Assembly (NCBI RefSeq): GCF_001050015.1
Contig: NZ_CVTB01000088.1
Location: 17,520 to 81,519, forward strand
Direction: 5' to 3'
DNA: 64,000 nt
Origin: Mycolicibacterium malmesburyense
GTDB taxonomy: Bacteria > Actinomycetota > Actinomycetes > Mycobacteriales > Mycobacteriaceae
Both the position numbers and the translations under genes were made by a program. Positions 6,186 through 26,066 of this stretch are shown one piece after another (position 1 is the stretch's first letter; each line of letters begins with the position of its first letter). The notes under the pieces are model-generated. The model saw only the letters and a program-made list of their open reading frames with translations, had not been told where the DNA came from and made no database searches.

Positions 6186-6578
6186 ATGACCGACACCGCA
6201 CAGGCCACGGAAACGCTTGTCCGCGGGTTTCTCGACGCATGGACCACGAGGGACCTCGACGCGATCTGTTCCGCGTTCGCCGACAACGCCGTCTATCACA
6301 ACGTGCCGGTCGACCCGATCGTCGGCATCCCCGCCATCCGGGGAATCTTTCAGGCGTTTCTGGACGCGTTCACCGAGGCCAAACTGGACGTCGTGACGCT
6401 CGCTGCCGCACCGGGGCTCGCGCTCGTCGAACGGGTCGACCACTTCACGCTCAACGACGGCGGCAAGGTCGAGCTGCCGGTGACGGGTGTGTTCGTGACC
6501 GAGAACGGCAAAGTCACGCGCTTCAGCGATTACTTCGACCTCGCAGACTTCGAGCGCCAAAGCGGATTCAAGCTGTAG
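6186..6578 (+). CDS. Limonene-1,2-epoxide hydrolase-type enzyme (NTF2 fold)
   Basis: The 130-residue protein matches the limonene-1,2-epoxide hydrolase (LEH) branch of the NTF2/SnoaL fold. LEH enzymes use an Asp-Arg-Asp triad plus a Tyr and Asn that hold the attacking water. Corresponding residues are visible: Y37 and N39 in AVYHNVP, R83 and D85 in LVERVDHF, and D115/D118 in RFSDYFDL. The start has a strong AAGGAG site 6 bases upstream. It would open an epoxide to a vicinal diol without a covalent intermediate. M. tuberculosis EphG is a known mycobacterial relative. SnoaL-like isomerases are the alternative, but the RxD pair favours LEH. Its neighbours include two EphB-like hydrolases. Confidence 0.75.
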   Translation: MTDTAQATETLVRGFLDAWTTRDLDAICSAFADNAVYHNVPVDPIVGIPAIRGIFQAFLDAFTEAKLDVVTLAAAPGLALVERVDHFTLNDGGKVELPVTGVFVTENGKVTRFSDYFDLADFERQSGFKL

Positions 6579-6662
6579 CAGATTTCGCAATCACCGACAT
6601 CTGGCAGGATTGAAGCCGCTCGCGTTGCGCCGGTTGCGAAAACGAGGAAGGGGCCTCCGGAC

Positions 6663-7847
6663 ATGGAACCCGTCGTCGGCACGGTCAAACGCCGGCCGAA
6701 GGATCGCAAGAAGCAGATCCTGCAGCAGGCGGTGCGACTCTTCACCGAACGCGGCTTTCACTCGGTCCGGTTGGAGGAGATCGCCGAGGCGGCCGGTGTC
6801 ACCGCACGCGCCCTGTACCGACACTACGAGAACAAGCAGGCACTGCTTGCCGCGACGATCATCACCGCGCAGGAGGAGTACCAGAGTGTCCTCGGCCGGG
6901 ATTCGGACTCGACGGATCAACCACTGCGAGAAGAATTACCGGACCTGATCGCCGCCGCCGTGGCCACCCGCGCGCTGACGGTGTTATGGCAGCGCGAGGC
7001 ACGCTACCTCAACGCCGACGACCGTGCCCAGGTGCGGGGCAGGATCAACGCCATCGTCGCGGGCATGCAGGCCGGCGTCCGGTTGGAAGTGCCCGAGTTG
7101 GGTGACCGCCATTCCGAACTCCGCGCCTGGGCGGTGTCCAGCACCCTGACCAGCCTCGGCCGCCATTCCCTCACGCTACCGCGAGAAGAGCTCAAAGACG
7201 TTCTCTACCAAGCATGCATGGCCGCGGCACGGACTCCCCCAGTCAGCGACCTGACTCCTGACGCTGCGCCGCGGCATGACGAACGGGCGTTGTTCTCCAG
7301 GCACGAAACGCTGTTGGCGGCGGGCGCGCGGCTGTTTCGGGCCAAGGGCTACCAGGCCGTCAGCACCAGCGAGATCGGAAAGTCGGTCGGCATCGCGGGC
7401 CCGGGTCTGTACCGGTCGTTCTCCTCAAAACAGGCGATTCTGGACACGCTGATCCGCCGCCTCGACGATTGGTGGACCCTCGAATGCGTCCGCGCGCTGC
7501 GGGCCGACGGTGACGAGGCCGAGAGGCTGCGTCGACTCGTTGCGGGACGGGTCCGGATCTGCCTGGACGATCCGGATCTGGTGTCGGTGTCGATCACCGA
7601 ACTCGCCCATGCCTCCGAGGAGGTGCGCGACGGCTACCTCCGGAGCCAAGCCGACCGTGAGGCGGTGTGGACCGAAACCATCCGCAAGCTGGTACCCGAA
7701 ACGACCACCGCCCAAGCGCGCCTTCTGGTAGCGGCAGCCGACAGTTTCATCGACGACGTTGCTCGCACATGGCATCTCACGCGCTATGGCGGAGTCGCCG
7801 AAGAGATCACTGCCCTCGCACTGTCCATTCTGACCAGTAGGCGCTGA
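6663..7847 (+). CDS. Double TetR-domain transcriptional regulator
   Basis: The 394-residue protein holds two complete TetR-type units in tandem. The first DNA-binding domain is at about residues 15-62 ([20 protein letters not shown], then [13 protein letters not shown]) and the second at about 213-260 ([20 protein letters not shown], then [13 protein letters not shown]), each followed by its own helical ligand-binding region. Ordinary TetR proteins are near 200 residues and bind as dimers, so this is roughly a covalent dimer of diverged halves. The ATG at 6663 has AGGAAGGGG about 9 bases upstream. It follows the LEH-type gene on the same strand and is likely a local repressor; its ligand is unknown. 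Confidence 0.88.
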
Positions 7848-7865: not shown

Positions 7866-9245
7866 TCATGCCCGGACCGGCCGAGTCTGGTGGGCGGCCG
7901 CAGACGACGGCATGAGGGCCTTCAGCGCAACGGAGGGCCGCATGAGCGAGGTGGGCGCACGCTGAAGATGCATGACATCGATGAACTCACGCGCGACGCC
8001 GGCGTCCCGCCAGGTCATCTCCGTCACCTTCCCCAGATACCAACTCGCGGCCTTCGACACCAACCTGCCACCACCATTCGCAGACACCGCACCGTAGTCC
8101 TCCACGGTCGAGGTGAACCAGCACTCGTCGAGGAATCGACTATAAGCCCGGTGAAAGCGCTTGGAAAGGCCCACAATTCGGGACGGCGCTACCGCGTCCC
8201 GTTGCTCGCTCAGACATCTGTCCAGGATGGTCGTGCCGATGGCACCGTGCGACATGCCCTGTGCGTACAGTGGGTTCAGCGAGGTGTTCGCGTCGCCGAC
8301 GACGACGAAACCTTCCGGTAGCGACGCCAGCTTGTCGTAGTGGCGGCGTAGATTGGCCGGGAACCGCCACCGGTGCACCTCCTCCAGGCAGGTCGCCTCG
8401 CGCAATGCCTCGTACAGATCCGGTACCGGCAATCCTTTCGTCCATTCGAGGAAGCTTTCGAGGTCTCCGCCAGCGTAGTCACCCTGCCACCCGAGTAGCG
8501 TCACGATCCATCGGCCACCCTCGGTGGGGAGCAGCGCCGCGGTTCGGGTGGCAGGCGGCCTCGAATGAATCAACATCCCCTTCCAGTCACGAAAATCATC
8601 GGGTGGACTGAAAAGTGTTGTGGAGTATCCGATATCGACCTTCAGCTCGCTGACTTCCGGCGACCCGAAACCCATCGCAGACAGGTGTCGGGGTGTCTCG
8701 GAGTTGCGACCGCTCGCGTCGATCACCAGGTCTGCGTCCAGTGTCGTCCCGCCGGCGAGTTCCACTCCGGTGATCCGCTTGCCAGTGGCTTGGTAGCCGG
8801 TCACCTTGGTGTTTTGCAGCAGCGACACGTTCGGCAGCTGAAGAAGCCGCTCGCGGAGGTAGAACTCCAGGAAGCCCCGGGTCTGGCACAACATCGTCAG
8901 CCCGCTGTCGAAGCGTTTCTTCCAGCCCCCGGAGTGGTACCAACAGATGTCGTTGGCCATGTCCACCTCAACCGAGCCCTGGCCGAGCAGGTCGGTGGTC
9001 AGACCGGGAAAGTAGTGGTTGAACACGTTCTGTCCGCCGCGCAACAGAATATGGCCGTGGTGGGATTGCGGCGCACCCTTACGCCACGTGGGGCCATCCG
9101 GAAGGCGGTCCCGGTCAATGGTCGTGACCCTGTCGAAATGGCGCGCGGCCACGGCCGATGCAGCCAGGCCCGTGGTGCTTGCACCGATCACAACGGCATG
9201 TCGGCCCTCAAAGCTGCCGAACCGGACCGCATCTTTTGCATTCAT
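7866..9245 (-). CDS. FAD-dependent monooxygenase, epoxidase-like
   Basis: This is a 459-residue flavoprotein of the p-hydroxybenzoate hydroxylase/squalene epoxidase-like class. It shows the N-terminal FAD dinucleotide motif VVIGASTTGLAAS (about 18-30), a middle DLVIDASGRNSETP element, and the second FAD motif GFVVVGDANTSLNPLYAQGM near the C-terminus. Its C-terminal region resembles the third module of the fusion protein at 15754-18288 (both have the GDA/NP/GM pattern and an REF-V-LxxAP-like tail), so the two are probably paralogues. The ATG at 9245 fits the family start. Squalene-epoxidase-type activity is inferred from the neighbouring epoxide hydrolases. It would need a flavin reductase or ferredoxin reductase for electrons. 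Confidence 0.82.
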   Translation of the reverse strand: MNAKDAVRFGSFEGRHAVVIGASTTGLAASAVAARHFDRVTTIDRDRLPDGPTWRKGAPQSHHGHILLRGGQNVFNHYFPGLTTDLLGQGSVEVDMANDICWYHSGGWKKRFDSGLTMLCQTRGFLEFYLRERLLQLPNVSLLQNTKVTGYQATGKRITGVELAGGTTLDADLVIDASGRNSETPRHLSAMGFGSPEVSELKVDIGYSTTLFSPPDDFRDWKGMLIHSRPPATRTAALLPTEGGRWIVTLLGWQGDYAGGDLESFLEWTKGLPVPDLYEALREATCLEEVHRWRFPANLRRHYDKLASLPEGFVVVGDANTSLNPLYAQGMSHGAIGTTILDRCLSEQRDAVAPSRIVGLSKRFHRAYSRFLDECWFTSTVEDYGAVSANGGGRLVSKAASWYLGKVTEMTWRDAGVAREFIDVMHLQRAPTSLMRPSVALKALMPSSAAAHQTRPVRA

Positions 9246-9322: not shown

Positions 9323-10219
9323 CTAAGCTCCCGAAGGCGCTCGACGCAGCTCCGCCGGCGTCGTGTCGAAGGCCCGCTTGAACGATTTGGTCAGATGGCT
9401 CTGGTCGCAGAACCCCGTCGCCCCGACGATTTCCTTGAGCTCCATTTCGCTGTGCAGGATCAGGTAACGCGCGCGTTCCACTCGCCGTCGCTGGACGTAC
9501 GCATGCGGTGGCACGCCGAACCGCTTCTTGAACAGCCGCGCAAAGTGATACCGGCTCATCCCCGCGACCCCGGCCAGCGACTCCAGTCGTAGGTCGGCGG
9601 CGAGGTTGTCGTCGATGTACTCCTCGACCTGGCGGGCATGAACTGCGCTCAGCGCTCCGGGGCACCGGGGGGCACGAACACGCGATTCGGCGTGGTGGCG
9701 CAGTAATTGCACACTGAGCTGAGTGATCACTGCATCCCGGTAGAGGGCGCCGCCGAACGCGTCGCGCCGCAACTCCGTTGCCAGCGTGATGATCCCCTGT
9801 TGGATGACGGGATCCCGAACCTGAAAGCATTCCTGAATCGCGACGCTGTCGACATGCCGGTCGTAGACCTCGGACGCGAAATCTGCCAGCCGGTGTGCAT
9901 TGAGGTAGAGCACCGTGGCCTGAAACCCTCTGCTCCACTGCCAGGCCGATTCGTAGCCGGGCCGAAGTATCGAGAAGTCTCCCGGACTCATCAGTGTCTT
10001 GCTACGGATCGCACCGCATTTGAGCGCGATCTGGGCGCGGGTCTGCCACGCGATGACAGCGACGTCGCGCAGTGGCGGAACCTGCGTCCGGTGTGAATGG
10101 AATTGATAGATACGCAGATCGGCTCCCGGAAGCTGCCCATCACTGGTGGCCAGCACACACTTCGCAGGGACCGCACGGTCAACCCCGGTGGCGTCGACGT
10201 TCTTCGGCGGCTTCACCAT
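9323..10219 (-). CDS. AraC-family transcriptional regulator
   Basis: The 298-residue regulator has an AraC-binding-like N-terminal domain (about 1-190, similar in layout to AraC/OxyR-type ligand-binding regulators) and a typical double helix-turn-helix C-terminus (about 195-295; LESLAGVAGMSRYHFARLFK, then EIVGATGFCDQSHLTKSFKR). It sits between the FAD monooxygenase (downstream, same strand, 77-bp gap) and a divergent SDR/epoxide hydrolase pair, and probably activates one or both. The ligand is unknown. Confidence 0.9.
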   Translation of the reverse strand: MVKPPKNVDATGVDRAVPAKCVLATSDGQLPGADLRIYQFHSHRTQVPPLRDVAVIAWQTRAQIALKCGAIRSKTLMSPGDFSILRPGYESAWQWSRGFQATVLYLNAHRLADFASEVYDRHVDSVAIQECFQVRDPVIQQGIITLATELRRDAFGGALYRDAVITQLSVQLLRHHAESRVRAPRCPGALSAVHARQVEEYIDDNLAADLRLESLAGVAGMSRYHFARLFKKRFGVPPHAYVQRRRVERARYLILHSEMELKEIVGATGFCDQSHLTKSFKRAFDTTPAELRRAPSGA

Positions 10220-12255: not shown

Positions 12256-13026
12256 TCACCACAGCGCGGCGCGGGTACCGCCGTCGGCCAGCTGCGCGGT
12301 GCCGTTGACCATCGACGCGTCGTCGGACAGCAGGAAGGCAACCACCCCGGCCATCTCCTCGGGCCCGGCCATCCGGCCCTGCAGACGGCCGATCATGGTG
12401 TCCGCCCCGCCTTCGCCGAGCACCTCGTCGAACGTCGTCATCGCGGTCCGCTGCATCGGAGTGTCGACGAACGCCGGCAGCACCGCGTTGGATCGCACGC
12501 CGGCCGAACGTAATTCGGCCGCGGTGATGCGACTCAGATGGATGATTCCCGCCTTCGACATGCCGTACGCTGCGGTGCCCGCGGCGGCCACCAGTCCCGC
12601 CAGCGAGGACATGTTGACGATGGCGCCGCCACCGCGTTCGATCATCTTCGGCGCGGCGTGCTTGGTGCACAACCACGCGCCGCGCAGGTTGATCCGCACC
12701 ACCCGGTCGAAATCCTCGACCGTGGTGTCGAGCAGCGACGCGAAGTGCACCACACCAGCATTGGCGACCAGCTTGTCGACGCCTCCGAACGCTGCCGTAC
12801 AGGCGTCGATCATGCCGATCACCTGCTGCTCGTCGCTGATGTCGACGCGATGCCCGACGGCACCGCCGCCGATCTTGGCCGCCGCAGCCTCGGCCGACCC
12901 GCCGTCGATGTCGGCACACAGCACCCGACAACCCTCGACGGCAAGCCGTTCCGCGATAGCGAGGCCAATGCCCGCGCCGGCTCCCGTGACGATCGCCGCC
13001 TTGCCGGCGAGATCTGGATGTGTCAT
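12256..13026 (-). CDS. Short-chain dehydrogenase/reductase (Rv1941-like)
   Basis: The 256-residue classical SDR has GAGAGIG (about 16-22) for cofactor, CADID giving an acidic residue that favours NAD, NAG at about 89-91, serine in NMSSLAG, and YGMSK for the catalytic Tyr/Lys. It is the last gene of the minus-strand operon that begins with the LLM monooxygenase. From memory, M. tuberculosis Rv1941 is a 256-residue SDR in the same place after ribA1. It probably oxidises an alcohol or diol made by the upstream oxygenase and epoxide hydrolase. It starts 49 bp after the RibBA-like gene ends and is convergent with the second ephB-like gene. Confidence 0.92.
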   Translation of the reverse strand: MTHPDLAGKAAIVTGAGAGIGLAIAERLAVEGCRVLCADIDGGSAEAAAAKIGGGAVGHRVDISDEQQVIGMIDACTAAFGGVDKLVANAGVVHFASLLDTTVEDFDRVVRINLRGAWLCTKHAAPKMIERGGGAIVNMSSLAGLVAAAGTAAYGMSKAGIIHLSRITAAELRSAGVRSNAVLPAFVDTPMQRTAMTTFDEVLGEGGADTMIGRLQGRMAGPEEMAGVVAFLLSDDASMVNGTAQLADGGTRAALW

Positions 13027-13075
13027 CGAGTCACCTTGAGTCGTGCCGCCGCCCCTGCCACGTCACCCTGCCATG

Positions 13076-14158
13076 TCACCCGGCGACCCGTAGCCCATGC
13101 TCGCGAATCGCCCCGAAGATCACCAGGCCGAATCCCGGTGCGTCATCGGACAGCCGGACGGTGTAGACGCCCAGATCGCGCAGAACCCACCCCACCGTCT
13201 GCGAGACCGCTTCCGAATCAAAATCTTCGGTGTTCGTCAGGCCGCAGGCGCGCATCGGACCGGGCGGGCGCAGGTAGATGACGACCCCGCCGTCCTGCGC
13301 CCTCATATCGCTTAACGCGCGGTCCAGATCGGTACCGCATCGGCAGGCGGTCGAGCCGAAGACATCCGACGTCAGACACTCGACGTGGACGTGGAGCGGT
13401 ACCGGCACCCCGGCGCCGACATCACCGATGATGACGGCCAGGTGCTCACCGTCGCCGTGTGCGTCACGGAACCCGATGGCACGGAACGCGCTGCCCCGGT
13501 TCGGCAGCACCGTCTCGGCCATTCGCACGACCTGGGGCTCGATGCGCCGCCGATAGCTGACGAGTTCCGCGACGGAGACGACGGCCAATCCGTGCTCGAG
13601 GGCGAATTCGAGCAGTTCGCCACCTCGCGCCATCGCGCTGGGCCGGTGGCGGGACACGATGTCGCACATCCCCGCGGCCTCTCGCCGGCCTGCGAGGCGG
13701 GCGAGGTCGAGGGCTGCCTCGGCAGGACCCGGCCGTCCCAGCACGCCGTCCGGGGCCACCTCGACCGGAACCACATGCCCGGGCCGACGAAAGTCCGATG
13801 TCTCAGAACTTTTCGCCGCCAGCGCGGCGATGGTCGCCGCCCGGTCGGTCGCCGATATCCCGGTGCCGGTACCCCGCCAATCGACCGCCACCCGATGGGC
13901 GCCCGCATCGGAGTGGGTGTCGCCGCGGTGGCAGATCGGCGGCAGGTTCAGCCGCTCACACTCGGCGGTCGGCAGCGCGACCCTGACATAGCCCGAGGAA
14001 TGCCGGACCGTGAAGGCCAGTAACTGGGGCGTGGCTGCTTCGGCAGCGAAAGCGAGATATCCCTCATGGTCGTTCTCCGGGCCCATCGTGATGACCACGG
14101 GGCGCCCGGCGCCCACCGCTGTGATTGCGCGACGGACCCTGGTGTCGGTCGTCTTCAT
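13076..14158 (-). CDS. ribA1: Degenerate RibBA-like protein (Rv1940/RibA1 type)
   Basis: The 360-residue protein has the two-domain plan of RibBA: a DHBP synthase-like part (about 1-200) and a GTP cyclohydrolase II-like part (about 200-360). Conserved pieces are TGISATDRAATI, FRRPGHVVP, and the zinc cysteines of ECLTSDVFGSTACRCG. Key catalytic pieces look changed: the DExRENEGDL acidic loop reads GPENDHEGYL, the GHTEA histidine site reads GPAEA, and the GRGIGL arginine loop reads GPMRACGL. Ordinary riboflavin synthesis is therefore doubtful. Its start overlaps the flavin reductase stop by 4 bp. M. tuberculosis has the same gene (annotated ribA1) in the same order. It may supply or bind a modified flavin for the local oxygenases; that is a guess. 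Confidence 0.8.
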   Translation of the reverse strand: MKTTDTRVRRAITAVGAGRPVVITMGPENDHEGYLAFAAEAATPQLLAFTVRHSSGYVRVALPTAECERLNLPPICHRGDTHSDAGAHRVAVDWRGTGTGISATDRAATIAALAAKSSETSDFRRPGHVVPVEVAPDGVLGRPGPAEAALDLARLAGRREAAGMCDIVSRHRPSAMARGGELLEFALEHGLAVVSVAELVSYRRRIEPQVVRMAETVLPNRGSAFRAIGFRDAHGDGEHLAVIIGDVGAGVPVPLHVHVECLTSDVFGSTACRCGTDLDRALSDMRAQDGGVVIYLRPPGPMRACGLTNTEDFDSEAVSQTVGWVLRDLGVYTVRLSDDAPGFGLVIFGAIREHGLRVAG

Positions 14159-14667
14159 ATCTGCTCCTGTAAGTCCGCGCGGGCGATCCGGTGAAACCGG
14201 CTGCCGTGAAACACAAGTGGCGGCATGGCGGCATCTGCGTCCAAGGCACAGACCTCGAGAACTGCGATCGTGTGATCACCCGCTCGTACCTCGCTGCGTA
14301 ATCGGCAATCCAGCCAGGCACTGGCCCTGGACACGACCACCGCTCCGGTCGCCAGCTCCGTCCAGGGCACACCGGCGAACCGGTCACCCTCTTTGCGCGA
14401 CAGACTGCGACAAGCATCGCCGTGGTCCTCGGCCAGCACACTCAGGCCCAGCCGCGCAGCCTTCTTCAGCCGTGGCCACGTCCTGGAGTCGTTTTGGATA
14501 CAGATCGAGACGAGCGGCGGTTCGACCGAAACCGACGTGAACGAACTCGCCGCCATCCCCACCGGCTCTCCGTCGACCATCGCGCACACGGCGGTCACCC
14601 CCGACGGGTAGCAGCCGTAAACCCGTCGCAGTTCGGCGCCGTCAATGGGTGGGGGGCGCAGTTCCAC
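14155..14667 (-). CDS. Flavin reductase domain protein (Rv1939-like)
   Basis: The 170-residue protein belongs to the flavin reductase-like (HpaC/FMN-binding split-barrel) family. Typical blocks are YPSGVTAVCA (about 17-26), GMAASSFTSVSVEPPLVSIC (about 36-55) and the C-terminal GDHTIAVLEV. Members reduce free FMN or FAD with NAD(P)H and supply two-component monooxygenases. I place the start at GTG 14667 because it shares its first base with the ephB stop (TAGTG), a translational coupling, and because the length then fits. It should feed the LLM or FAD monooxygenases of this operon. Confidence 0.88.
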   Translation of the reverse strand: MELRPPPIDGAELRRVYGCYPSGVTAVCAMVDGEPVGMAASSFTSVSVEPPLVSICIQNDSRTWPRLKKAARLGLSVLAEDHGDACRSLSRKEGDRFAGVPWTELATGAVVVSRASAWLDCRLRSEVRAGDHTIAVLEVCALDADAAMPPLVFHGSRFHRIARADLQEQI

Positions 14668-15740
14668 TAGTGCAGTCCCGCCAGGAAATCGAGCAGCAGC
14701 CGGTTGGTCTCCTTGGGCTCTTCTTGTTGGATCCAGTGCCCGACATCGGCGATCATGTGGGTGCCGCAGTAATTGGGCATCACCTCGTGGGCGCGTTCGA
14801 CCGCCTCGGCCCCCCATGTCGTCCCGACGTCGTACTGGCCCCCGATGAACAGCGCCGGTGGGGTCAGCGGCGTGCCTTCCTGCTCGGCGAGGTCGCACCA
14901 GTCGTTGTCGATGTTGTGGTAGAAGCTCAACGGCCCGCCGAACCCGGATCGTTCGAACTCTGCGGTGTAGAAGTCGAGATCGGCATCGGTGAACCAGTCC
15001 GGCATCGTTTCCGGGTAGCTGAACGCGTCCTTGAGGCGCGCCCCTTCCGGTAGGCACAGCGGACCGGAGCGGATCACCTCGACGGGATCCATTGACGCCA
15101 GGTCGACGCCGGCGGCCACCGCCGCCTGGGTGGCCGCGATCATTCCCTGACCCGACACGGTGTAGGTCAGGCCGAGCAGCCAGCCGCGGAGATCCTCTTC
15201 GATCTCGGCGATGATCGCGTCTTGTTCGGAGAAGTAATCCTGATACCACAGCTTCCCGGGGCCGGCCAGCTCGAGGTGGTAATCGTTGGGCCTGCGCTCA
15301 CCGAATGGGCTACCGGGCAGGCCGATCACCCCGCGACCGGCGAACGGAACACTGATGCCGACGACGCCGCGGCACCGGTCCGGATGCAGCCAGGCCGACG
15401 TCCACGCCACCGGGGCGCCCCAGTCGTGACCGACCACGACCGCCTGCTTCTCGCCGTAGGCGTCGATGACTCCCACGATGTCGCCGACCAATTCCTTGAT
15501 GCGGTACGCCTTTTGCACCCGGTACTTCGACGAGCGCCCGTAGCCACGCTGATCGATCGCCACCACCCGGTATCCCGCGTTGGCCAGCGCGGGAATCTGG
15601 TGGCGCCACGAGTACCACGACTCCGGGAAGCCGTGCACCAGGATCACCAGCGGTCCCTCACCCTGCTCCACGGCGTGGATGCGGGTTCCGCGGCAGTCGA
15701 GCAACCGATGGGTTGGCGACATCTGCGTCATGTGCGACAT
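14667..15740 (-). CDS. ephB: Epoxide hydrolase EphB
   Basis: The 357-residue alpha/beta-hydrolase epoxide hydrolase is very close, as far as I recall, to the crystallised M. tuberculosis EphB (Rv1938). It has HGFPESWYSWRHQ (about 36-48), nucleophile D106 in GHDWGAPVAW, the charge-relay acid in GGQYDVGT, and the catalytic histidine in DVGHWIQQE. The first ATG at 15740 has an AAGGGG element about 7 bases upstream; ATGs four and seven codons in are alternatives. It converts epoxides to vicinal diols. It lies 13 bp after the fusion oxygenase gene, so the product of that enzyme is its probable substrate. Confidence 0.95.
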   Translation of the reverse strand: MSHMTQMSPTHRLLDCRGTRIHAVEQGEGPLVILVHGFPESWYSWRHQIPALANAGYRVVAIDQRGYGRSSKYRVQKAYRIKELVGDIVGVIDAYGEKQAVVVGHDWGAPVAWTSAWLHPDRCRGVVGISVPFAGRGVIGLPGSPFGERRPNDYHLELAGPGKLWYQDYFSEQDAIIAEIEEDLRGWLLGLTYTVSGQGMIAATQAAVAAGVDLASMDPVEVIRSGPLCLPEGARLKDAFSYPETMPDWFTDADLDFYTAEFERSGFGGPLSFYHNIDNDWCDLAEQEGTPLTPPALFIGGQYDVGTTWGAEAVERAHEVMPNYCGTHMIADVGHWIQQEEPKETNRLLLDFLAGLH

Positions 15741-15753
15741 GTGAGCCCCTTCT

Positions 15754-18310: not shown

Positions 18311-19420
18311 CTAGGCGATGGCGACCGTGGACTTCTTGTCGATGCGAGCGTTGAGCTTGGGCATAACCTCCTCGGCAAGCAGCCGCATCGACTCCTTCCA
18401 CGGTCCGGGGTTGTCGCTGTAATCGCAGCCGAGGATCAACAGGTGACCGAAGCCCCCGACCTGGTCATAGGTGGCCTCCAGCTTGTCGACCACCGTCTCG
18501 ACGGAGCCGACCACAAAGGTGTTCTCCGCCAGGTATTCCGGTGTTACGTCCTCATCGGGAACCGAGGGGTTGTGCTTGTAGAACTTGGTCATGCCGAACA
18601 TCCGGAACGTCGGCAAGACGTACTCGCGCATGAAGCGGCCGATCATGCCGTCGACGGCGTACCGGAATGCCTGTTCGTCGGTTTCGGCGACGACGACCTC
18701 GCGCACCAGGCGCCAATCGCGGCGGTCCGGAGTGCGGCCGCTGCGCGCGGCACCCTCGAGCACTGCGTCCCAGTGCGTAGCGACGTACTCGGTGTTCAGA
18801 TCGAGGCTCATCGGGAGATAGCCGCGCTCACCGGCAAGCTTGAGCGTTTCGGAGCCGGCGCTGAACCCCGTGACCCCGATCGGCGGGTGAGGCGCCTGGA
18901 AGGGCTTGATGTGCCGATGCATCAGGCCTTCGAACATCGGGGCGATCCCGTTGGCATTCCAGTATTTTCCGCGGTACTCCCACGGGTCGTCCTCGGTCCA
19001 GACCTTGAGCATGATCTCGAGTGCTTCCCGGGTCATCTCGCGGTGCTCACCGTTCTGTCCGTCGACATCGAACAGCGCCCAGTCGCCGGGGATGCCGCTG
19101 GCACCCACCCCGAGCATGAAGCGGCCTTGGGCAAGGTGGTCGAAATAGGCCACGCGGTGGGCCAGCTCCACCGGATGGTGGTACGGAAGCAGATGGGCCC
19201 CGGGCGCCAGCTTGATCGACTTCGTCCGCAGTAGCGCCTGAGCCAGCAGCAGGTCCGGTGCGCAGATCGGCTCCCAGGGCACGGTGAAGTGCTCGCCGAC
19301 CCACGCCTCGACGTAACCCAGTTCGTCGGCGAGTTGGATCAGCTCCAGATCCCACTGGGTTGCGTCGTACAGGCTGCGCTCCGGCGGGTGCGCCGGCATC
19401 AGGAAAAGTCCCAGTTCCAT
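18311..19420 (-). CDS. Luciferase-like monooxygenase (Rv1936-like)
   Basis: The 369-residue protein is a bacterial luciferase-like flavin monooxygenase with the TIM-barrel pattern: LGLFLMPAHPPERSLYDATQ at the start, VEAWVGEHFTVPWEP, KLAPGAHLLPYHHPVELAHR, GRFMLGVGASGIPGDWALFD and the late GSVETVVDKLEATYDQVGGF. I chose ATG 19420 over the TTG two codons earlier because AGAGGG lies 6 bases before it, and the length then equals that of Rv1936 as I remember it. It is the promoter-proximal gene of the operon and would use reduced FMN from the local flavin reductase, or F420. The substrate is unknown. Confidence 0.9.
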   Translation of the reverse strand: MELGLFLMPAHPPERSLYDATQWDLELIQLADELGYVEAWVGEHFTVPWEPICAPDLLLAQALLRTKSIKLAPGAHLLPYHHPVELAHRVAYFDHLAQGRFMLGVGASGIPGDWALFDVDGQNGEHREMTREALEIMLKVWTEDDPWEYRGKYWNANGIAPMFEGLMHRHIKPFQAPHPPIGVTGFSAGSETLKLAGERGYLPMSLDLNTEYVATHWDAVLEGAARSGRTPDRRDWRLVREVVVAETDEQAFRYAVDGMIGRFMREYVLPTFRMFGMTKFYKHNPSVPDEDVTPEYLAENTFVVGSVETVVDKLEATYDQVGGFGHLLILGCDYSDNPGPWKESMRLLAEEVMPKLNARIDKKSTVAIA

Positions 19421-19650
19421 CTTCAACCCTCTCAGTAGTGGTCGCTCGCCCGACGGCTTGCTGCGATGTGCACCACAGTACTAGCAAGATACTTCATTGT
19501 GCGCAAGTAGGCTACTGTCTTGGTGATTTACTCGGACAAAAGTTTCACTATTGCCGTACTGACTATGGACATTTTGGTTTCGCGCCGCGTAGCCTGCAGC
19601 TCAGCAGCGTGACCGCGCGCCGAGCGGTGACGACCTGAAGGGAGCACTTC
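19421..19650. promoter_or_regulatory. Divergent control region with overlapping palindromes
   Basis: The 230-bp region lies between the LLM-fusion-ephB operon and the echA13-fadE17-fadE18 operon. Around 19476-19527 it becomes AT-rich and holds several symmetric elements: TACTT-N10-AAGTA at 19490-19509, AGTAG-G-CTACT at 19506-19516, and flanking CAAGATA/TGTCTTG halves (one mismatch). This looks like an operator for a shared regulator of both arms. A GGGAG element 6 bases before GTG 19651 serves the enoyl-CoA hydratase gene. Confidence 0.5.
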
Positions 19651-20547
19651 GTGCAGCATTTCGACTACATCGACTACGAACTGCTCGATGACGGCCGAAT
19701 CGCCGTGATCACGCTCGATCGCCCGAAACAGCGCAATGCGCAGAACCGCGGGCTGCTGGTCGAGCTTGGAGCGGCGTTCGAACTCGCCGAAGAGGACGAC
19801 ACCGTGCGGGTGGTCATCCTGCGCGGCGCAGGACCATGCTTCTCGGCGGGCCATGACCTGGGTTCCGCCGACGACATCCGCGAGCGATCGTCGGGCCCCG
19901 GTCAGCACCCGACCTATCACTGCAACGGCGGGACGTTAGGCGGGGTGGCGACGCGCCATCGCCAGGAGTGGCACTACTTCTTCCAGAACACCAAACGCTG
20001 GCGCAACCTGCGCAAGATCACCATCGCCGAGGTGCACGGGATGGTTCTGTCGGCCGGCCTGATGCTGGCATGGTGCTGCGACCTGATCGTCGCCGCCGAC
20101 GACACGATCTTCGCCGACGTCGTGGGCACCCGCCTGGGAATGTGCGGAGTGGAGTATTTCGGCCATCCCTGGGAGTTCGGTCCCCGCAAGGCCAAGGAGC
20201 TGTTGCTCACCGGGGACGCCCTGACCGCCGACGACGCGCATGCCCTCGGTATGGTCAGCAAGGTGTTCGGCAACGACGAACTACCCGACGCCACAGTCGA
20301 ATTCGCCCGCCGGATCGCCAAGCTACCGCCACTCACCGCGTTGCTGATCAAGGAGTCGGTGAACCAGACCGTCGATGCCATGGGGTTCGGCGCCGCACTC
20401 GACGCCTGCTTCTCGCTGCACCAGCTCAACCACGCCCATTGGGCCGACGTGACCGGCAACCCCTTGGGCATCGGCAGCGTCGAATACGGACTCGAGGACT
20501 GGCGGCTGACACCGGAGATCCTGCCCGCGGCCAAGCGGCGGCCCTGA
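19651..20547 (+). CDS. echA13: Enoyl-CoA hydratase/isomerase family protein (EchA13-like)
   Basis: The 298-residue crotonase-fold protein has [15 protein letters not shown] (about 13-27) and the oxyanion-hole block [14 protein letters not shown] (about 64-77). Then comes a family-specific insert and the second oxyanion region [20 protein letters not shown]. The usual catalytic glutamate position after GMCGVEY is not obvious, so hydratase activity is not certain; isomerase or hydrolase activity is possible. It heads the plus-strand operon with two acyl-CoA dehydrogenases. M. tuberculosis Rv1935c (echA13) has the same place. It starts at GTG with AAGGGAG upstream. Confidence 0.88.
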
Positions 20548-20561: not shown

Positions 20562-21776
20562 GTGGACGTCGACTACCCGTCCGAGGCGATCGCCTTTCGC
20601 GATCAGATCAGGGCGTTTCTGGCCGAACACCTGCCCAGCGACTGGGGTGGCGCCGGCGCGCTGCCGCCAGAGGAGCGCGAACAGCTCGGGGCGCGGTGGC
20701 GCAAGATCCTCGCCGACCGGGGCCTGATCGCGGTGTCCTGGCCGAATGAGTACGGCGGTGGCGGGCTTTCGGTGATCGAACAATTGGTGGTCGCCGAGGA
20801 GTTCGCCCGTGCCGGTGCGCCGGACCGCGTGGAGAACGATCTGCTGGGCATCGACCTGCTGGGCAACACGATGATCGCCGTGGGCTCCGAGGAACAGAAA
20901 CGCCACTTCCTGCCGCGCATCCTCTCCGGTGAGGACCGCTGGTGCCAGGGATTCTCCGAACCCGACGCCGGCTCGGATCTGGCATCGGTACGGACGAAGG
21001 CCGTTCTCGACGACGACGAGTGGGTGATCAACGGGCAGAAGATCTGGACGTCGGCGGGGCCGACGGCGAATTGGATCTTCGTGCTCGCCCGCACCGATTC
21101 CGCCGCACCGAAGCACAAGGGCTTGTCGATACTGCTGGTGCCGATCGACCAACCCGGCGTGGTGGTCCGGCCGATCGTCAACGCCGCGGGGTACGCCTCG
21201 TTCAGTGAGGTCTTCTTCACCGATGCCCGCGCACGGGCTGCTGACGTGCTCGGCGGGGTCGGTGGCGGGTGGCGGACCGCCATGACACTGCTCGGTTTCG
21301 AGCGCGGTTCGCAGATCACCACCGCCGCAGTGGAGTTCGGCAGGGACCTGGAGCGGCTGCTAGCCCTGGCCCGCGACCGCGGACGGCACACCGATCCCCA
21401 CATCCGCGACGAGCTTGCGTGGTGCTACTCACGCGTCCAGATTCTGCGGTATCAGGGCTACCGTGGCCTGACCGCGCTGCTGCGCGGCGAACTTCCGGGC
21501 GCCGATGCCGCGATCAACAAGGTGATCTGGAGTGAGTACTTCCGGCGCTACACCGAGCTCGCCGTCGAGATCCTCGGACTGGACGCGCTCAGCCCGCACG
21601 GCCCGGGAAACGGTGCGGCACTGCTCGTTCCGGTGGCGGGGACACCGAACTCCGCCAGCTGCTGGATGGACGAACTGCTGTACGCGCGGGCCGCCACGAT
21701 CTATGCGGGCAGTTCGCAGATCCAGCGTAACGTGATCGGCGAGCAACTGTTAGGGCTTCCCAAGGAAGCGCGCTGA
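20562..21776 (+). CDS. fadE17: Acyl-CoA dehydrogenase FadE17-like
   Basis: The 404-residue acyl-CoA dehydrogenase is the larger partner of an adjacent pair. It has [16 protein letters not shown] (FAD/substrate motif, about 127-142), [18 protein letters not shown], and the C-terminal [20 protein letters not shown]. Mycobacterial FadE pairs encoded side by side, including FadE17-FadE18, have been reported to form alpha2beta2 heterotetramers in which each subunit supplies part of the active site. GTG 20562 has GGGAG about 7 bases upstream and lies 14 bp after echA13. It would introduce a 2,3 double bond into a CoA ester, possibly a bulky one. Confidence 0.92.
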
Positions 21777-21777: not shown

Positions 21778-22869
21778 ATGGATTTCCGCTACAACACCGA
21801 ACAGGTCGACTTCCGCGCCTCACTGCGCGACTTCCTCGCCGAGACGGCGCCCCTGTCGCGGGTACGTGACATCGCGGTCGAGGGCGGCCACGACCAGCGC
21901 CTGTGGCAGCGCATCTGCAGCGAGTTGGAACTACCCGCACTTCACCTTCCGCCTGAGCACGGCGGGGCCGGCGGCACCCTGGTGGAGGCCGCCATCGCCT
22001 TCGAGGAGCTCGGCCGGGCGCTGACGCCGGTTCCGCTGGCGGGCAGTGTCTTCGCGATTGAGTCGGTGCTGCGGATGGGCAATGCGGAGCAACGGCAGCG
22101 CTTGCTGCCCGGATTGGTCAGCGGTGAGCGAATCGGAACGTTCACCGCCGTCGGACCCGATGCCGCCGATCCCACGACGGCCACCGTGCGAGCCGACCTC
22201 CACGGTGGCCGCCCCGTCCTGCACGGTGAGTGCTCACCGGTGCTATACGGGCACGTCGCGGACCTGTTCGTTGTAGCTGCCGAAACCGGTGGCACCGTCT
22301 CCCCCTTTGTCGTGACCGCCGATACGCCTGGGCTCACCGTGGAACCGCTGCCCTCGTTCGACACCACTCGACCGGTGGCCCGGTTGAGGTTCGCGCACAC
22401 CCCGGCAGAGGCACTGCCCGGTTCGGACGGATTGGATGGTGTGCTCGACGTGGCGCGGGTGCTGTTGGCCGCCGACATGCTCGGCGGCGCCGAAGCGTGT
22501 CTAGCGCTATCCGTCGAATACGCCAGCAGCAGAATGCAATTCGACCGCCCGATCGGCTCGTTTCAGGCTGTGAAGCACGCGTGCGCGGAGATGATGATCG
22601 AAATCGATGCCACCCGCGTCGCCGTCATGTTCGCCGCGATGAGCGCCACCGACCCCGACGAGCTAGCGATCACCGCGCCTCTGGTCAAGGCGCAGGCCGC
22701 AGACACCTTCGCGCTGTGCGCCGGTTCGGCGATCCAGGTGCACGGTGGCATCGCCTTCACCTGGGAACACGACATCCACCTGTATTACCGCCGCGCCAAG
22801 ACCACCGAGGCACTGTTCGGCAGCAGCACCCACCACCGCGCGCTGCTCGCCGACCGTGCCGGTTTGTAG
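21778..22869 (+). CDS. fadE18: Acyl-CoA dehydrogenase FadE18-like
   Basis: The 363-residue protein is the short partner of FadE17, starting one base after its stop. It keeps the ACAD fold (LPPEHGGAGGTLVEAAIAFE, RPIGSFQAVKHACAEMMIEI, and the C-terminal IQVHGGIAFTWEHDIHLYYR block) but has an abbreviated middle domain and lacks the SEPxAGSD motif present in FadE17. This is the typical split of labour in heterotetrameric mycobacterial ACADs. It should not be active alone. Confidence 0.92.
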   Translation: MDFRYNTEQVDFRASLRDFLAETAPLSRVRDIAVEGGHDQRLWQRICSELELPALHLPPEHGGAGGTLVEAAIAFEELGRALTPVPLAGSVFAIESVLRMGNAEQRQRLLPGLVSGERIGTFTAVGPDAADPTTATVRADLHGGRPVLHGECSPVLYGHVADLFVVAAETGGTVSPFVVTADTPGLTVEPLPSFDTTRPVARLRFAHTPAEALPGSDGLDGVLDVARVLLAADMLGGAEACLALSVEYASSRMQFDRPIGSFQAVKHACAEMMIEIDATRVAVMFAAMSATDPDELAITAPLVKAQAADTFALCAGSAIQVHGGIAFTWEHDIHLYYRRAKTTEALFGSSTHHRALLADRAGL

Positions 22870-22892
22870 CCCGCATCACCGAGGAGCCGACG

Positions 22893-25800
22893 ATGACCAG
22901 CACGCCAACCGTGGCAGTTCCCTCGCCGTCCACGGGAATCACCCTCAGCGACGTTCTCACTCGGCATACCCGGGTGCGTCCCAGCGACGTCGCGTTCGTC
23001 GACTCCCGGCGCCGATGCACCTTCGGCGAACTGGACGGTCGGGTGACCCGGTTGGCCGATGCGCTGTCGGCACGTGGCATCGGCCAAGGCGACCGGGTCG
23101 CGGTGCTGGGGACCAACAGCCTGGAGATCGTCGAAACCTGGTTCGCTGCAATGCGTGTCGGCGCGATCGTGGTGCCGGTGAACTTCCGGTTCGTCGCCGA
23201 TGAGGTCGGCTACGTGCTCTCCGACAGCGGTTCAGCGGCGCTGGTCGTCGACCTGACCCTGGCGGGCGTGGCCGACCAGGCACGCAGCGCGGCGCCGTCG
23301 GTGCACACCGTCCTGACGATCGGTGGCGACTTCGAGGAAGCCGTCGCCGGTGCCGCCCCCGGCTGCGCGCCCGACATCCGCGTCGCGGTCGCCGACGAGG
23401 ACCCGGCGTTCCTGGTGTACACCTCGGGTACCACGGGTTTCCCGAAAGGCGCGGTGCTCACTCACCGCAACCTCTACCTGCACGCGTTCAGTTCGATTGC
23501 CAGCCTCGGCCACCGCGAGGATGACGACTGCTGGATGGGGGTGGCCCCGCTGTTCCACACCGCGGGCATCTCGGGAATGTTGCCGACGTTTTTGACCGGC
23601 GGCAAGGTGGTGATTGCGCCGTCGGGCGGCTTCGACGCCGAGACCACGATCCGCACGATGGTCGACGAGCGGGTGTCGTCGTGCTTCATGACTCCGACGC
23701 AGTGGCAGAGCGTCTGCGCGATGGACGACCTCGCGTCCTGGGATCTGTCTTGTCTGCGCCGCGTGTGGTGGGGTGCGGCGCCGGCTTCGACGACGTTGCT
23801 GCAGAACATGATCGACGCGTTTCCCCAGGCCGAGGTCATCGCGGCGTTCGGGCAGACCGAGTGCAGCCCCATCACATGCCTGCTGCGGGGCGAGGACTCG
23901 ATCCGCAAGATCGGCTCGGTGGGCAGGCCGATGCTCAACGTCGAGGTGCGCATCGTCGACGAGGACATGAACGACGTGGCCCCCGGCACCGTCGGCGAGA
24001 TCGTCTATCTGGGCCCGCTGGTGATGAAGGAGTACTGGAACAAGCCCAAGGAGACCGCCGAAGCCTTCCGCGGCGGCTGGTTCCACTCCGGCGACCTCGT
24101 CCGCCAAGACGACGACGGCTACATTTACGTGGTCGACCGAAAAAAGGACATGATCATCTCGGGCGGAGAGAACATCTACAGCGCCGAGGTCGAGAACGCG
24201 CTGGCGGCCCAACCGAAGGTCGCCGAGGTAGCCGTGATCGGCGTGCCCGACCAACAGTGGGGCGAGACACCGCTGGCGGTGATCGTCGCGCGCGATCCCG
24301 CGGATCCGCCGACCACGGCCGAGGTCGAGTCGCACTGCCGTGCGCACCTGGCCGCCTACAAGCTGCCGCGGCGCATCGTGATCGTCGACGAGCTGCCCCG
24401 CAATGCCGCGGGCAAGGTCTTGAAGAACGTGCTGCGCGACGCGTATGGCGCACCGCTGTCCCATGCGGCGGGGCCGACCGATGCACCGCTGCTGGAGGAA
24501 ACCATCGGGCACAACCTCGAGCGAACAGCCGCGGCCCACCCCGACGTCGATGCCCTCGTCGATATTCGCTCTGGCCGTCGTTGGACATACGCCGAGTTGA
24601 ATTCTGAAATCGAGGTTGTTGCAAGAGGTTTGATCGCCAGTGGTATCGAGAAGGGTGACCGGGTCGGTATCTGGGCGCCGAACTGTGCCGAATGGACGAT
24701 TCTGCAGTACGCCACGGCGAAAGCCGGTGCGATCCTGGTCACCGTCAATCCCGCGTACCGCACACACGAGTTGGCGTACGTCTTGCGACATTCGAGCATG
24801 CGGATGTTGGTGTCGGCGACCGAGTTCAAGACCTCCGATTACCGAGCAATGGTCACAGAGGTGCGGCCCGAGGTTCCCGACCTGACCGAGGTGGTGTTCC
24901 TCGGCACCGACGACTGGCAGCGACTCCGGCAGCGCGCGGACGAAGTGTCGCACGATGAGCTCCGATCGCGAATGGGCGCCTTAGCTTCGACTGATCCGAT
25001 CAATATTCAATACACCTCGGGCACAACGGGATCCCCGAAAGGGGCCGTGCTGTCACACCGCAACATCTTGAACAACGGATACTTCGTCACCGAGCTGATC
25101 AATCTGAGAGAAAGCGATCGGCTGTGTATACCGGTGCCGTTCTATCACTGCTTCGGCATGGTGATGGGCAATCTGGGGTGCACCACCCACGGTGCCACCA
25201 TGGTGATCCCGTCTCCCGGCTTCGACCCCGCGGCGACGTTGGCGGCGATCGAGGCCGAACGGTGCACCGGCGTGTACGGCGTTCCGACCATGTTCGTCGC
25301 GATGCTGGCCCACCCTGATATGGCCGACCGAGATCTGTCGTCTCTGCGAACCGGCATCATGGCGGGGGCGACCTGCCCGATGGAACTCATGAAGCGCTGC
25401 ATCAACGAGCTGAACATGTCGGAGGTGGCGATCGCCTACGGCATGACCGAGACGTCTCCGGTGTCGTGCCAGACCCGAATCGACGATGACCTTGACCGGC
25501 GCACCGCCACCGTCGGACGGGTCCATCCGCACGTCGAGATCAAGATCGTCGACACCAGCAGCGGTGAGACGGTCAAACGCGGTGTGCCCGGGGAGTTCTG
25601 CACCCGCGGCTACTCGGTGATGACCGGCTACTGGGACGACGAGGTCAAGACCCGCGAGGCCGTCGACGCCGACGGCTGGATGCACACCGGCGATCTCGCC
25701 GTGATGCGCGACGACGGGTACTGCCAGATCGTCGGGCGCATCAAGGACATGGTGATCCGCGGCGGCGAGAACGTCTACCCCCGCGAGGTCGAGGATTTCC

Positions 25801-26066
25801 TGCACTCCCACCCGGACATCGAGGACGCCCAGGTGGTCGGCGTGCCCGACGATAAGTACGGCGAGGAGATCTGCGCCTGGATCAAGATGCGTTCGGGCCG
25901 TGCTCCGCTGGACGCCGCGGCGGTGCGCGCATATGCGACCGACAAGCTCGCGCATTACAAGATTCCCCGTTATGTCCATATCGTCGAGGAGTTTCCGATG
26001 ACGGTGACCGGGAAGGTGCGCAAGGTGGATATGCGGGCCGAGAGCATCCGGTTACTGGGGCTCTAG
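22893..26066 (+). CDS. Tandem fusion of two acyl-CoA synthetases (FadD-FadD)
   Basis: A single 1057-residue reading frame holds two complete ANL-family acyl-CoA/acyl-ACP ligases. Unit one (about 1-515) has YTSGTTGFPKG at 176-186, a DGYIYVVDRKKDMIISGGEN hinge and the catalytic lysine in NAAGKVLK. Unit two (about 525-1057) has YTSGTTGSPKG near 707-717, DGYCQIVGRIKDMVIRGGEN and TVTGKVRK. The junction (near base 24440-24480) joins the natural C-terminus of one enzyme to the natural N-terminus of the next with no stop. ATG 22893 has GAGGAG upstream. It should activate two acids, or one acid twice, for the FadE17/18-EchA13 arm. An assembly error removing a stop is the alternative. Confidence 0.9.
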   Translation: MTSTPTVAVPSPSTGITLSDVLTRHTRVRPSDVAFVDSRRRCTFGELDGRVTRLADALSARGIGQGDRVAVLGTNSLEIVETWFAAMRVGAIVVPVNFRFVADEVGYVLSDSGSAALVVDLTLAGVADQARSAAPSVHTVLTIGGDFEEAVAGAAPGCAPDIRVAVADEDPAFLVYTSGTTGFPKGAVLTHRNLYLHAFSSIASLGHREDDDCWMGVAPLFHTAGISGMLPTFLTGGKVVIAPSGGFDAETTIRTMVDERVSSCFMTPTQWQSVCAMDDLASWDLSCLRRVWWGAAPASTTLLQNMIDAFPQAEVIAAFGQTECSPITCLLRGEDSIRKIGSVGRPMLNVEVRIVDEDMNDVAPGTVGEIVYLGPLVMKEYWNKPKETAEAFRGGWFHSGDLVRQDDDGYIYVVDRKKDMIISGGENIYSAEVENALAAQPKVAEVAVIGVPDQQWGETPLAVIVARDPADPPTTAEVESHCRAHLAAYKLPRRIVIVDELPRNAAGKVLKNVLRDAYGAPLSHAAGPTDAPLLEETIGHNLERTAAAHPDVDALVDIRSGRRWTYAELNSEIEVVARGLIASGIEKGDRVGIWAPNCAEWTILQYATAKAGAILVTVNPAYRTHELAYVLRHSSMRMLVSATEFKTSDYRAMVTEVRPEVPDLTEVVFLGTDDWQRLRQRADEVSHDELRSRMGALASTDPINIQYTSGTTGSPKGAVLSHRNILNNGYFVTELINLRESDRLCIPVPFYHCFGMVMGNLGCTTHGATMVIPSPGFDPAATLAAIEAERCTGVYGVPTMFVAMLAHPDMADRDLSSLRTGIMAGATCPMELMKRCINELNMSEVAIAYGMTETSPVSCQTRIDDDLDRRTATVGRVHPHVEIKIVDTSSGETVKRGVPGEFCTRGYSVMTGYWDDEVKTREAVDADGWMHTGDLAVMRDDGYCQIVGRIKDMVIRGGENVYPREVEDFLHSHPDIEDAQVVGVPDDKYGEEICAWIKMRSGRAPLDAAAVRAYATDKLAHYKIPRYVHIVEEFPMTVTGKVRKVDMRAESIRLLGL

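What the first reader, a model, noticed from the sequence alone, without database searches (positions are those of the whole stretch)
6186..26066. Epoxide-centred lipid oxidation system with two parallel modules
Within 20 kb there are three epoxide hydrolases of two unrelated folds (LEH type at 6186, EphB type at 11191 and 14667), two related FAD monooxygenases (7866 and the third module of 15754-18288), a flavin reductase, an LLM monooxygenase, two SDRs, a RibBA homologue, and a divergent arm of EchA13, a FadE17/18 pair and a double acyl-CoA synthetase. The 12.3-22.9 kb core matches my memory of the unassigned M. tuberculosis genes Rv1933c-Rv1941. The simplest reading is epoxidation of a double bond, hydrolysis to a diol, oxidation by SDR, then CoA activation and beta-oxidation of an unsaturated lipid or terpenoid. 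The second module (monooxygenase, AraC, SDR, EphB copy) looks like a local expansion.
Basis: partly seen in the sequence, partly recalled or inferred. Interest (0 to 1): 0.75.

Follow-up and report, generated by a model that had tools for sequence, protein, structure and literature searches.

The report
Mce3R-controlled lipid uptake and oxidation island
In an environmental mycobacterium, genes known from the tuberculosis bacillus as the mel2 locus and the Mce3R regulon lie together as one block that looks like a lipid importer plus an oxidation pathway, including a fused protein that closely resembles an antibiotic-pathway epoxidase, which gives a testable role to genes usually described as stress defence.

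Summary
The 12.3-22.9 kb core is the known mel2 locus (melF-K) with echA13-fadE17-fadE18. Operator pairs learned from the echA13-melF promoter of 72 sequences recur, with the published spacing of about 53 bp, before yrbE and before LEH-mce3R: one regulon and, here, one island.

The second module is a rare insert (intact in 6 of 394) without the operator pair; only its epoxide hydrolase is a near duplicate, so 'local expansion' is half right.

The parts
2..1006 (-). Mce-type importer subunit (first Mce gene), cut by the window's left end
   Evidence: Pfam Mce4_CUP1 229.5 bits and MlaD 56.7 bits
1011..1865 (-). YrbE-B permease (MlaE family)
   Evidence: Pfam MlaE 177.9 bits
1870..2760 (-). YrbE-A permease (MlaE family); true start probably below 2716, because an operator site lies at 2716-2740
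   Evidence: Pfam MlaE 183.1 bits; operator
2716..2818 (-). Predicted Mce3R operator pair before the importer operon (sites 2716-2740 and 2794-2818, 53 bp apart)
   Evidence: pair score 31.2 (38.4 and -7.2 for the two sites), best of 60 shuffled windows 1.2
3024..3437 (-). SnoaL-like protein
   Evidence: Pfam SnoaL_2 40.6 bits
3434..4723 (-). Cytochrome P450
   Evidence: Pfam p450 118.7 bits
4663..5976 (+). GAF-LuxR type regulator
   Evidence: Pfam GerE 73.3 bits, GAF 29.3 bits
6046..6147 (+). Predicted Mce3R operator pair before LEH-mce3R (sites 6046-6070 and 6123-6147, 52 bp apart)
   Evidence: pair score 12.7 (5.7 and 7.0), best of 60 shuffled windows 1.2
6186..6578 (+). LEH-type epoxide hydrolase
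   Evidence: PDB limonene-1,2-epoxide hydrolases, best E 1.6e-18
6663..7847 (+). Mce3R, tandem TetR repressor
   Evidence: PDB 9b7y Mce3R over residues 4-392, E 1.1e-176
7866..9245 (-). FMO2: stand-alone flavin monooxygenase of the Lsd18/MonCI family (module 2)
   Evidence: PDB Lsd18/LasC E 3.9e-61, MonCI E 8.2e-56
9323..10219 (-). AraC-type regulator (module 2)
   Evidence: Pfam HTH_18 85.8 bits
10405..11166 (+). SDR2, short-chain dehydrogenase (module 2)
   Evidence: Pfam adh_short_C2 209.3 bits
11191..12240 (+). Eph2, second EphB-type epoxide hydrolase (module 2)
   Evidence: PDB EphB E 3e-166
12256..13026 (-). MelK (Rv1941 type) SDR
   Evidence: Pfam adh_short_C2 189.2 bits; match in 70 of 71 loci
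13076..14158 (-). MelJ (Rv1940/RibA1 type), RibBA-like with altered catalytic loops
   Evidence: Pfam DHBP_synthase 186.4 bits and part of GTP_cyclohydro2; loop columns over orthologues
14155..14667 (-). MelI flavin reductase
   Evidence: Pfam Flavin_Reduct 132.3 bits; match in 35 of 71 loci
14667..15740 (-). MelH/EphB epoxide hydrolase
   Evidence: PDB 2zjf EphB E 1.1e-213
15754..18288 (-). MelG: 2Fe-2S/FAD/NAD reductase fused to an Lsd18/MonCI-like flavin monooxygenase
18311..19420 (-). MelF, LLM flavin monooxygenase, probably a type II Baeyer-Villiger enzyme
   Evidence: PDB 4uwm 3,6-diketocamphane monooxygenase E 2.4e-70, next hit 1.6e-18
19471..19575 (.). Mce3R operator pair between the divergent arms (sites 19471-19495 and 19551-19575, 55 bp apart)
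   Evidence: conserved blocks in 72 aligned intergenic regions
19651..20547 (+). EchA13, crotonase family
   Evidence: NCBIfam NF006140 407.8 bits, cut-off 280
20565..21776 (+). FadE17 acyl-CoA dehydrogenase (start uncertain)
   Evidence: three Pfam acyl-CoA dehydrogenase domains
21778..22869 (+). FadE18 acyl-CoA dehydrogenase
   Evidence: Pfam Acyl-CoA_dh_1 108.6 bits
22890..26066 (+). Double acyl-CoA synthetase, two AMP-binding modules in one frame (start uncertain)
   Evidence: Pfam AMP-binding and AMP-binding_C, two stretches each; match in 59 of 71 loci

Best explanation
This is a contiguous Mce3R regulon: a lipid uptake and oxidative degradation island. Mce3R sits on paired 25-bp operators before the YrbE/Mce importer, before its own LEH-mce3R unit and between the mel2 and echA13 arms, and is released by a hydrophobic inducer derived from the substrate. 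The importer brings in an unsaturated, probably cyclic, isoprenoid or other hydrophobic compound. MelG, whose own NADH:2Fe-2S:FAD reductase feeds electrons to its fused Lsd18/MonCI-like domain, epoxidises a C=C bond. MelH (and LEH, where present) hydrolyses the epoxide to a diol. MelK oxidises the diol to a hydroxyketone. MelF, a type II Baeyer-Villiger-like FMN monooxygenase fed by MelI or another flavin reductase, inserts oxygen beside the ketone so that the ring or chain opens to an acid. The double acyl-CoA synthetase, FadE17/FadE18 and EchA13 then process the acid as CoA ester. Shown here by sequence and model: gene content, orthology, co-occurrence, shared operator pairs, folds. Inferred: binding by Mce3R, each catalytic step, their order, and the substrate. 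Module 2 (FMO2, AraC, SDR2, Eph2) is a second epoxidation-hydrolysis-oxidation set, inserted between melK and mce3R and probably under its AraC protein.
Against: No substrate and no activity is shown for MelG, MelK, FMO2 or the synthetase. The family of FMO2 is broad (832 proteins at E <= 0.001 in a capped candidate list, among the 120 listed several named from cyanobacteria, Parvibaculum or Brevibacillus). MelG lies on a long separate branch and has neither polyether signature motif even in relaxed form (0 of 120 MelG relatives), so homology does not fix epoxidation. Of seven Lsd18 substrate contacts MelG keeps two, FMO2 three. EchA13 lacks both glutamates that I recall as catalytic in enoyl-CoA hydratases, in 72 of 72. 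MelI is absent in 35 of the 70 loci that could be judged. 8 of 40 loci have no YrbE/Mce match within 20 kb of mce3R; 13 of 40 have no pair labelled as before LEH/mce3R and 2 of 32 none before yrbE-A (a pair in a shared promoter was labelled once only, as yrbE-A). In the window the two weaker pairs rest on one strong and one poor site (yrbE-A) or two weak sites (LEH). Melg is in two pieces in L076, L077 and L078 and melF in L031, L069 and L072, so the locus decays in some species.
Confidence: 0.55

Rival explanations
1. [quoted passage not shown]
For: Published model and mutant phenotypes: an M. marinum melF mutant is more sensitive to ROS and RNS (PMC1793995, passages), and a melH mutant to oxidants (PMC11036813, abstract and passages). 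MelF belongs to the luciferase-like family.
Against: The LuxG comparison fits only MelG's N-terminal reductase; its C-terminal part is an Lsd18/MonCI-like monooxygenase. MelF is far closer to 3,6-diketocamphane monooxygenase (E 2.4e-70) than to luciferase alpha chains (E 5e-18 and 1.7e-8). The steady partners are acyl-CoA dehydrogenases, a crotonase and, in most loci, a double acyl-CoA synthetase and a lipid importer. Under oxidants the M. tuberculosis melH mutant was affected more than melF and melG mutants and wild type (PMC11036813, passage), which fits epoxide build-up. The locus is in 71 of 394 species of the genus, including ones that I recall as environmental (M. austroafricanum, M. lehmannii).
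Confidence: 0.2
2. A steroid or sterol side branch: the island degrades a sterol-like ring or side chain, with P450, SnoaL-like and FadE17/18 as the main catalysts and the epoxide enzymes serving detoxification of by-products.
For: The Mce subunit's best Pfam hit is Mce4_CUP1; FadE18's best NCBIfam hit is IpdE2, below cut-off, 211.7 against 450 bits; [quoted passage not shown] SnoaL-like and P450 genes within 20 kb of mce3R in 23 of 40 loci.
Against: MelG, MelH and MelF, not the P450, are the constant genes (71 of 71 loci against 23 of 40). Nothing here identifies a sterol.
Confidence: 0.2
3. Biosynthesis instead of degradation: MelG and FMO2 epoxidise an endogenous polyene lipid, as Lsd18 and MonCI do for polyethers, and the Mce system moves the product.
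For: Closest solved homologues of both monooxygenases are biosynthetic epoxidases.
Against: No polyketide synthase or carrier protein domain among the frames that I scanned with Pfam up to 34.9 kb; partner genes are those of acyl-CoA oxidation; polyether signature motifs are not met in full.
Confidence: 0.08

Closest known systems
mel2 locus (melF-melK, Rv1936-Rv1941) of M. marinum and M. tuberculosis
   Same: Same six kinds of genes in the same order, with echA13-fadE17-fadE18 divergent from them (gene names from PMC1793995 and PMC5584760; the M. tuberculosis order partly recalled).
   Different: Here Mce3R, LEH and an importer adjoin the locus, a double acyl-CoA synthetase follows fadE18, and a second monooxygenase-SDR-epoxide hydrolase module is inserted.
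Mce3R regulon of M. tuberculosis
   Same: Tandem TetR repressor, paired asymmetric 25-bp sites about 53 bp apart, targets mce importer, own gene and both arms (PMC11667970).
   Different: One contiguous island; in M. tuberculosis mce3R is Rv1963c and mel2 Rv1936-1941, so that other genes lie between (from the gene numbers).
Limonene 1,2-epoxide pathway of Rhodococcus erythropolis DCL14
   Same: Proposed order epoxidation, LEH-type hydrolysis, diol dehydrogenation, Baeyer-Villiger oxidation, CoA activation, beta-oxidation (PMC7794910, passage).
   Different: The presumed epoxidase here is a fused Lsd18-like enzyme; main hydrolase is EphB type; substrate unknown.
Polyether epoxidases Lsd18/LasC and MonCI
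   Same: Fold and 23-27% identity over 434-440 residues for the MelG domain; FMO2 E 3.9e-61.
   Different: No polyketide cluster seen; MelG carries its own reductase; signature motifs not met (MelG) or only in relaxed form (FMO2).
3,6-diketocamphane 1,6-monooxygenase (camphor degradation, Pseudomonas putida)
   Same: Best solved relative of MelF by far; type II Baeyer-Villiger enzyme (PMC4631483, abstract passages).
   Different: MelF's substrate is unknown; its flavin reductase partner is variably present.

Membership tests
Mce3R | Tandem TetR protein with two HTH units | tested here: met
   Two TetR_N stretches; full-length match to PDB 9b7y
Mce3R | Arg53 and Lys262 for DNA contact | tested here: met
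   Both aligned and identical in the window protein (alignment; residues named in PMC11667970). Motif strings intact in 55 of 66 orthologues, the other 11 not inspected
Mce3R | Paired asymmetric sites about 53 bp apart before the yrbE-mce operon | tested here: met
   2716-2740 and 2794-2818, 53 bp, the second site weak; pair in 30 of 32 genomes. By sequence only, binding not testable here
mel2 locus | melF-G-H-I-J-K order | tested here: met
   12256-19420, all on one strand
Polyether epoxidase (MonCI/Lsd18 clade), MelG domain | Fold | tested here: met
Polyether epoxidase (MonCI/Lsd18 clade), MelG domain | Signature motifs of PMC10560226 | tested here: not met
   0 of 120 relatives and not in the window protein, even in relaxed form
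Polyether epoxidase (MonCI/Lsd18 clade), FMO2 | Signature motifs of PMC10560226 | tested here: not met
   Full motifs 0 of 120 relatives; relaxed cores present in FMO2 and in 86 and 100 of 120 relatives. Works-like claim only
Polyether epoxidase (MonCI/Lsd18 clade) | Epoxide formation | not testable with these tools
   needs enzyme assay
Type II Baeyer-Villiger monooxygenase, MelF | Luciferase-like sequence family with diketocamphane monooxygenase as nearest solved relative | tested here: met
   E 2.4e-70
Type II Baeyer-Villiger monooxygenase, MelF | Ketone to ester or lactone activity | not testable with these tools
   needs enzyme assay
EphB-type epoxide hydrolase | Full-length homology to EphB with the GHDW and GHW regions (roles recalled) | tested here: met
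   Both copies align over full length; GHDWGAP and GHWIQQE present in both
Canonical riboflavin enzyme RibBA, MelJ | Acidic loop DDEDRENEGD of the first domain and a complete second domain | tested here: not met
   Window reads MGPENDHEGY against M. tuberculosis RibBA; in the orthologue alignment 52 of 71 rows have a gap at window residue 27; second domain matches only positions 3-85 of 165. Role of the loop recalled

The most novel reading that the evidence does not exclude
MelG is a self-sufficient member of the Lsd18/MonCI epoxidase superfamily (an iron-sulfur NADH reductase fused to the epoxidase), a kind that I did not find described, and the Mce3 importer with mel2 is a dedicated uptake and Baeyer-Villiger ring-cleavage pathway for a cyclic isoprenoid; oxidant sensitivity of mel2 mutants is a side effect of epoxide build-up.
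Probability: 0.4. Interest if true: 0.75.

Novelty: new variant of a known kind. Interest (0 to 1): 0.6.

Why it matters
The natural substrate of MelH is stated to be unknown (PMC11036813), and I know of none established for Mce3 (recalled). If importer, repressor and oxidation enzymes are one regulon with a fixed chemical logic, the search narrows to an imported unsaturated compound that is epoxidised, opened and Baeyer-Villiger cleaved, and environmental mycobacteria become the place to test it. The distribution found here also speaks against two printed statements: that mel2 is specific to M. marinum and M. tuberculosis (PMC5584760) and that mce3R orthologues are exclusive to a subset of pathogenic species (PMC11667970).

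Tried and rejected
Styrene monooxygenase (StyA) as the model for the two flavin monooxygenases: my first thought, dropped because the solved-structure and fold searches put Lsd18/MonCI first. F420-dependent enzyme for MelF: the NCBIfam F420 models listed are all below cut-off; diketocamphane monooxygenase is the best match. Local duplication as origin of module 2: only Eph2 fits. Common operator for module 2: best scores in its divergent promoter (10200-10405) were about -11; a lone B-type score of 4.5 lies at 10413-10437 inside the first codons of SDR2, below the shuffle maximum of 11.6. A combined A+B matrix was less specific than the pair search, its third and fourth hits (17.1 and 16.1) being near the shuffle maximum of 15.6. 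Whole-MelG structure: model too poor to use (pLDDT 50.8), so nothing is said about packing of reductase and monooxygenase. Frames between melK and mce3R in eight loci were listed; by reading only, some look like repeat-family and transposase-type genes; they were not scanned. Shuffles keep base composition, not dinucleotides. A MelJ loop pattern was badly chosen and replaced by the alignment. Counts depend on a 50% identity cut-off, count partial matches, and are limited by contig ends: of the five loci without Mce3R four are cut short (L008, L026, L046, L056) and in L042 mce3R lies farther off on the same contig. Five of the 72 match rows carry one internal stop. Papers on MelG as an epoxidase: none seen (95 papers, 30 listed) and none with Rv1937, epoxid and monooxygenase together; one search was swamped by other words. 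The library holds open-licence papers only.
Full report
What is in the window. The window is mycobacterial DNA (66% G+C). Its MelG is 97% identical to a protein named from Mycolicibacterium novocastrense, its MelG and EchA13 are 97% and 99% identical to M. lehmannii (L007), and its FMO2 is 97% identical to a protein named from M. elephantis. No whole genome is held for it.

The locus is known. EphB orthology, Mce3R orthology and gene order make 12256-19420 the mel2 locus, melK to melF, with echA13-fadE17-fadE18 divergent from it. The names and the published views come from PMC1793995 (passages), PMC5584760 (abstract in a listing, passages) and PMC11667970 (abstract, sections 15, 17, 18, passages). 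The published view of mel2 is resistance to reactive oxygen and nitrogen species by a lux-like system. Rv numbers of single genes are partly recalled.

6663-7847 matches solved Mce3R from end to end (E 1.1e-176). The left end carries MlaE/YrbE twice and a Mce protein with Mce4_CUP1, all on the minus strand and running off the window. A P450 and a SnoaL-like gene lie in the same direction before them, and a GAF-LuxR regulator diverges. To the right, the genes from 26141 match methylmalonate-semialdehyde dehydrogenase, an acyl-CoA dehydrogenase and 3-hydroxyisobutyrate dehydrogenase, which looks like valine catabolism and a boundary.

Conservation. MelG orthologues (E <= 1e-150) occur in 71 of 394 genus genomes, and Mce3R (E <= 1e-80) in the same 71. 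MelF passes its cut-off (1e-130) in 70 of these and in no other; the missing one has melF in two pieces, as have two more (L031, L069, L072). MelG is in two pieces in L076-L078. Matches of 50% identity or more, partial ones included, in 71 fetched loci: MelF, MelG, MelH, EchA13 and FadE17 71, MelJ and MelK 70, FadE18 69, Mce3R 66, the synthetase 59, LEH 37, MelI 35. Of 40 loci followed for 20 kb beyond mce3R, 32 have YrbE-A, YrbE-B and Mce, 23 LEH, 23 the P450 and 23 the SnoaL-like gene. The 40 were chosen by me from the 71, favouring long contigs. Phylogenetic dependence means that these counts are not independent events.

Regulation. Alignment of the echA13-melF intergenic region from 71 loci and the window shows two asymmetric conserved blocks. 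Matrices from these blocks alone were used to scan the window. As pairs with the arrangement seen there, they find the training site (score 85.2, gap 55), a site at yrbE-A (31.2, gap 53; one strong and one poor half) and one before LEH-mce3R (12.7, gap 52; two weak halves). The best of 60 shuffled windows scored 1.2. In other genomes pairs above 0 lie before yrbE-A in 30 of 32 and before LEH or mce3R in 27 of 40, none lay elsewhere in these 40 loci, and the best shuffled locus scored -9.6. A pair in a promoter shared by LEH and yrbE-A was labelled yrbE-A only. The published sites before yrbE3A are 25-bp, asymmetric and 53 bp apart (PMC11667970). That the three promoters answer to Mce3R is thus strongly supported by sequence; binding was not tested. 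The promoter of module 2 shows no pair.

FMO2 and module 2. FMO2 is nearer to Lsd18 (E 3.9e-61), and in a tree of 52 rows the two polyether enzymes nest inside its broad bacterial family. Full-length FMO2 is in 6 of 394 genomes and in part in one more at E <= 1e-100; a smaller remnant is in L065. The module lies between melK and mce3R in five of the six and is split over two contigs in the sixth. In M. lehmannii FMO2 is in pieces, Eph2 is cut, and no SDR2 or AraC match was found. Eph2 is 80-90% identical between genomes and 64-71% to MelH, so the duplication is probably older than these species. SDR2 and MelK are 31-38% identical.

MelF and the pathway. [quoted passage not shown] the MelF modelling paper already cites that structure (PMC5584760, reference list passage). 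With MelH shown in print to be an epoxide hydrolase, the simplest order is epoxide, diol, ketol, ester or lactone, acid, CoA ester. This is the order given for limonene in R. erythropolis DCL14 (PMC7794910, passage). I rate the regulon identity at about 0.97, the epoxidase fold of MelG at 0.95, its epoxidase function at about 0.65, MelF as Baeyer-Villiger enzyme at about 0.6, and the whole order at about 0.45.

Loose ends. MelJ keeps several motifs of RibBA but not the acidic loop, and its second domain is incomplete, in the window and with related changes across orthologues. EchA13 lacks the two glutamates that I recall for hydratases in 72 of 72, so its reaction may be another one. MelI is missing in 35 of 70 loci that could be judged, so MelF must then be served by another reductase. 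Drug-resistance reports (contezolid, benzoxaboroles) are cited only as hints to MelF activity (PMC10720489, PMC5854369, passages).

Noticed in passing
13076-14158: MelJ is a RibBA relative with a degenerate acidic loop and an incomplete second domain, conserved with the locus; probably not an ordinary riboflavin enzyme.
   Followed up: partly
19651-20547: EchA13 lacks both recalled catalytic glutamates of enoyl-CoA hydratase in 72 of 72 sequences.
   Followed up: partly
22890-26066: Two acyl-CoA synthetase modules fused in one frame; stop-to-stop frames of 1018 residues or more in 42 of 59 loci with a match.
   Followed up: partly
L009: In M. lehmannii module 2 is decaying: FMO2 in pieces, Eph2 cut, SDR2 and AraC not found.
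   Followed up: no
between melK and mce3R in L047, L048, L058, L063, L066, L072: Other frames of 1.5 to 6 kb in all lie at the same place as module 2, so it may be an insertion-prone spot.
   Followed up: partly
29778-33373: Nitroreductase, HAD hydrolase, response regulator and GAF histidine kinase next to each other, reminiscent of a DosRS-type set (resemblance recalled).
   Followed up: no
26141-29768: Methylmalonate-semialdehyde dehydrogenase, acyl-CoA dehydrogenase and 3-hydroxyisobutyrate dehydrogenase: a valine catabolism set flanking the island.
   Followed up: no
48433-49752: Another luciferase-like monooxygenase (Bac_luciferase 180.4 bits).
   Followed up: no
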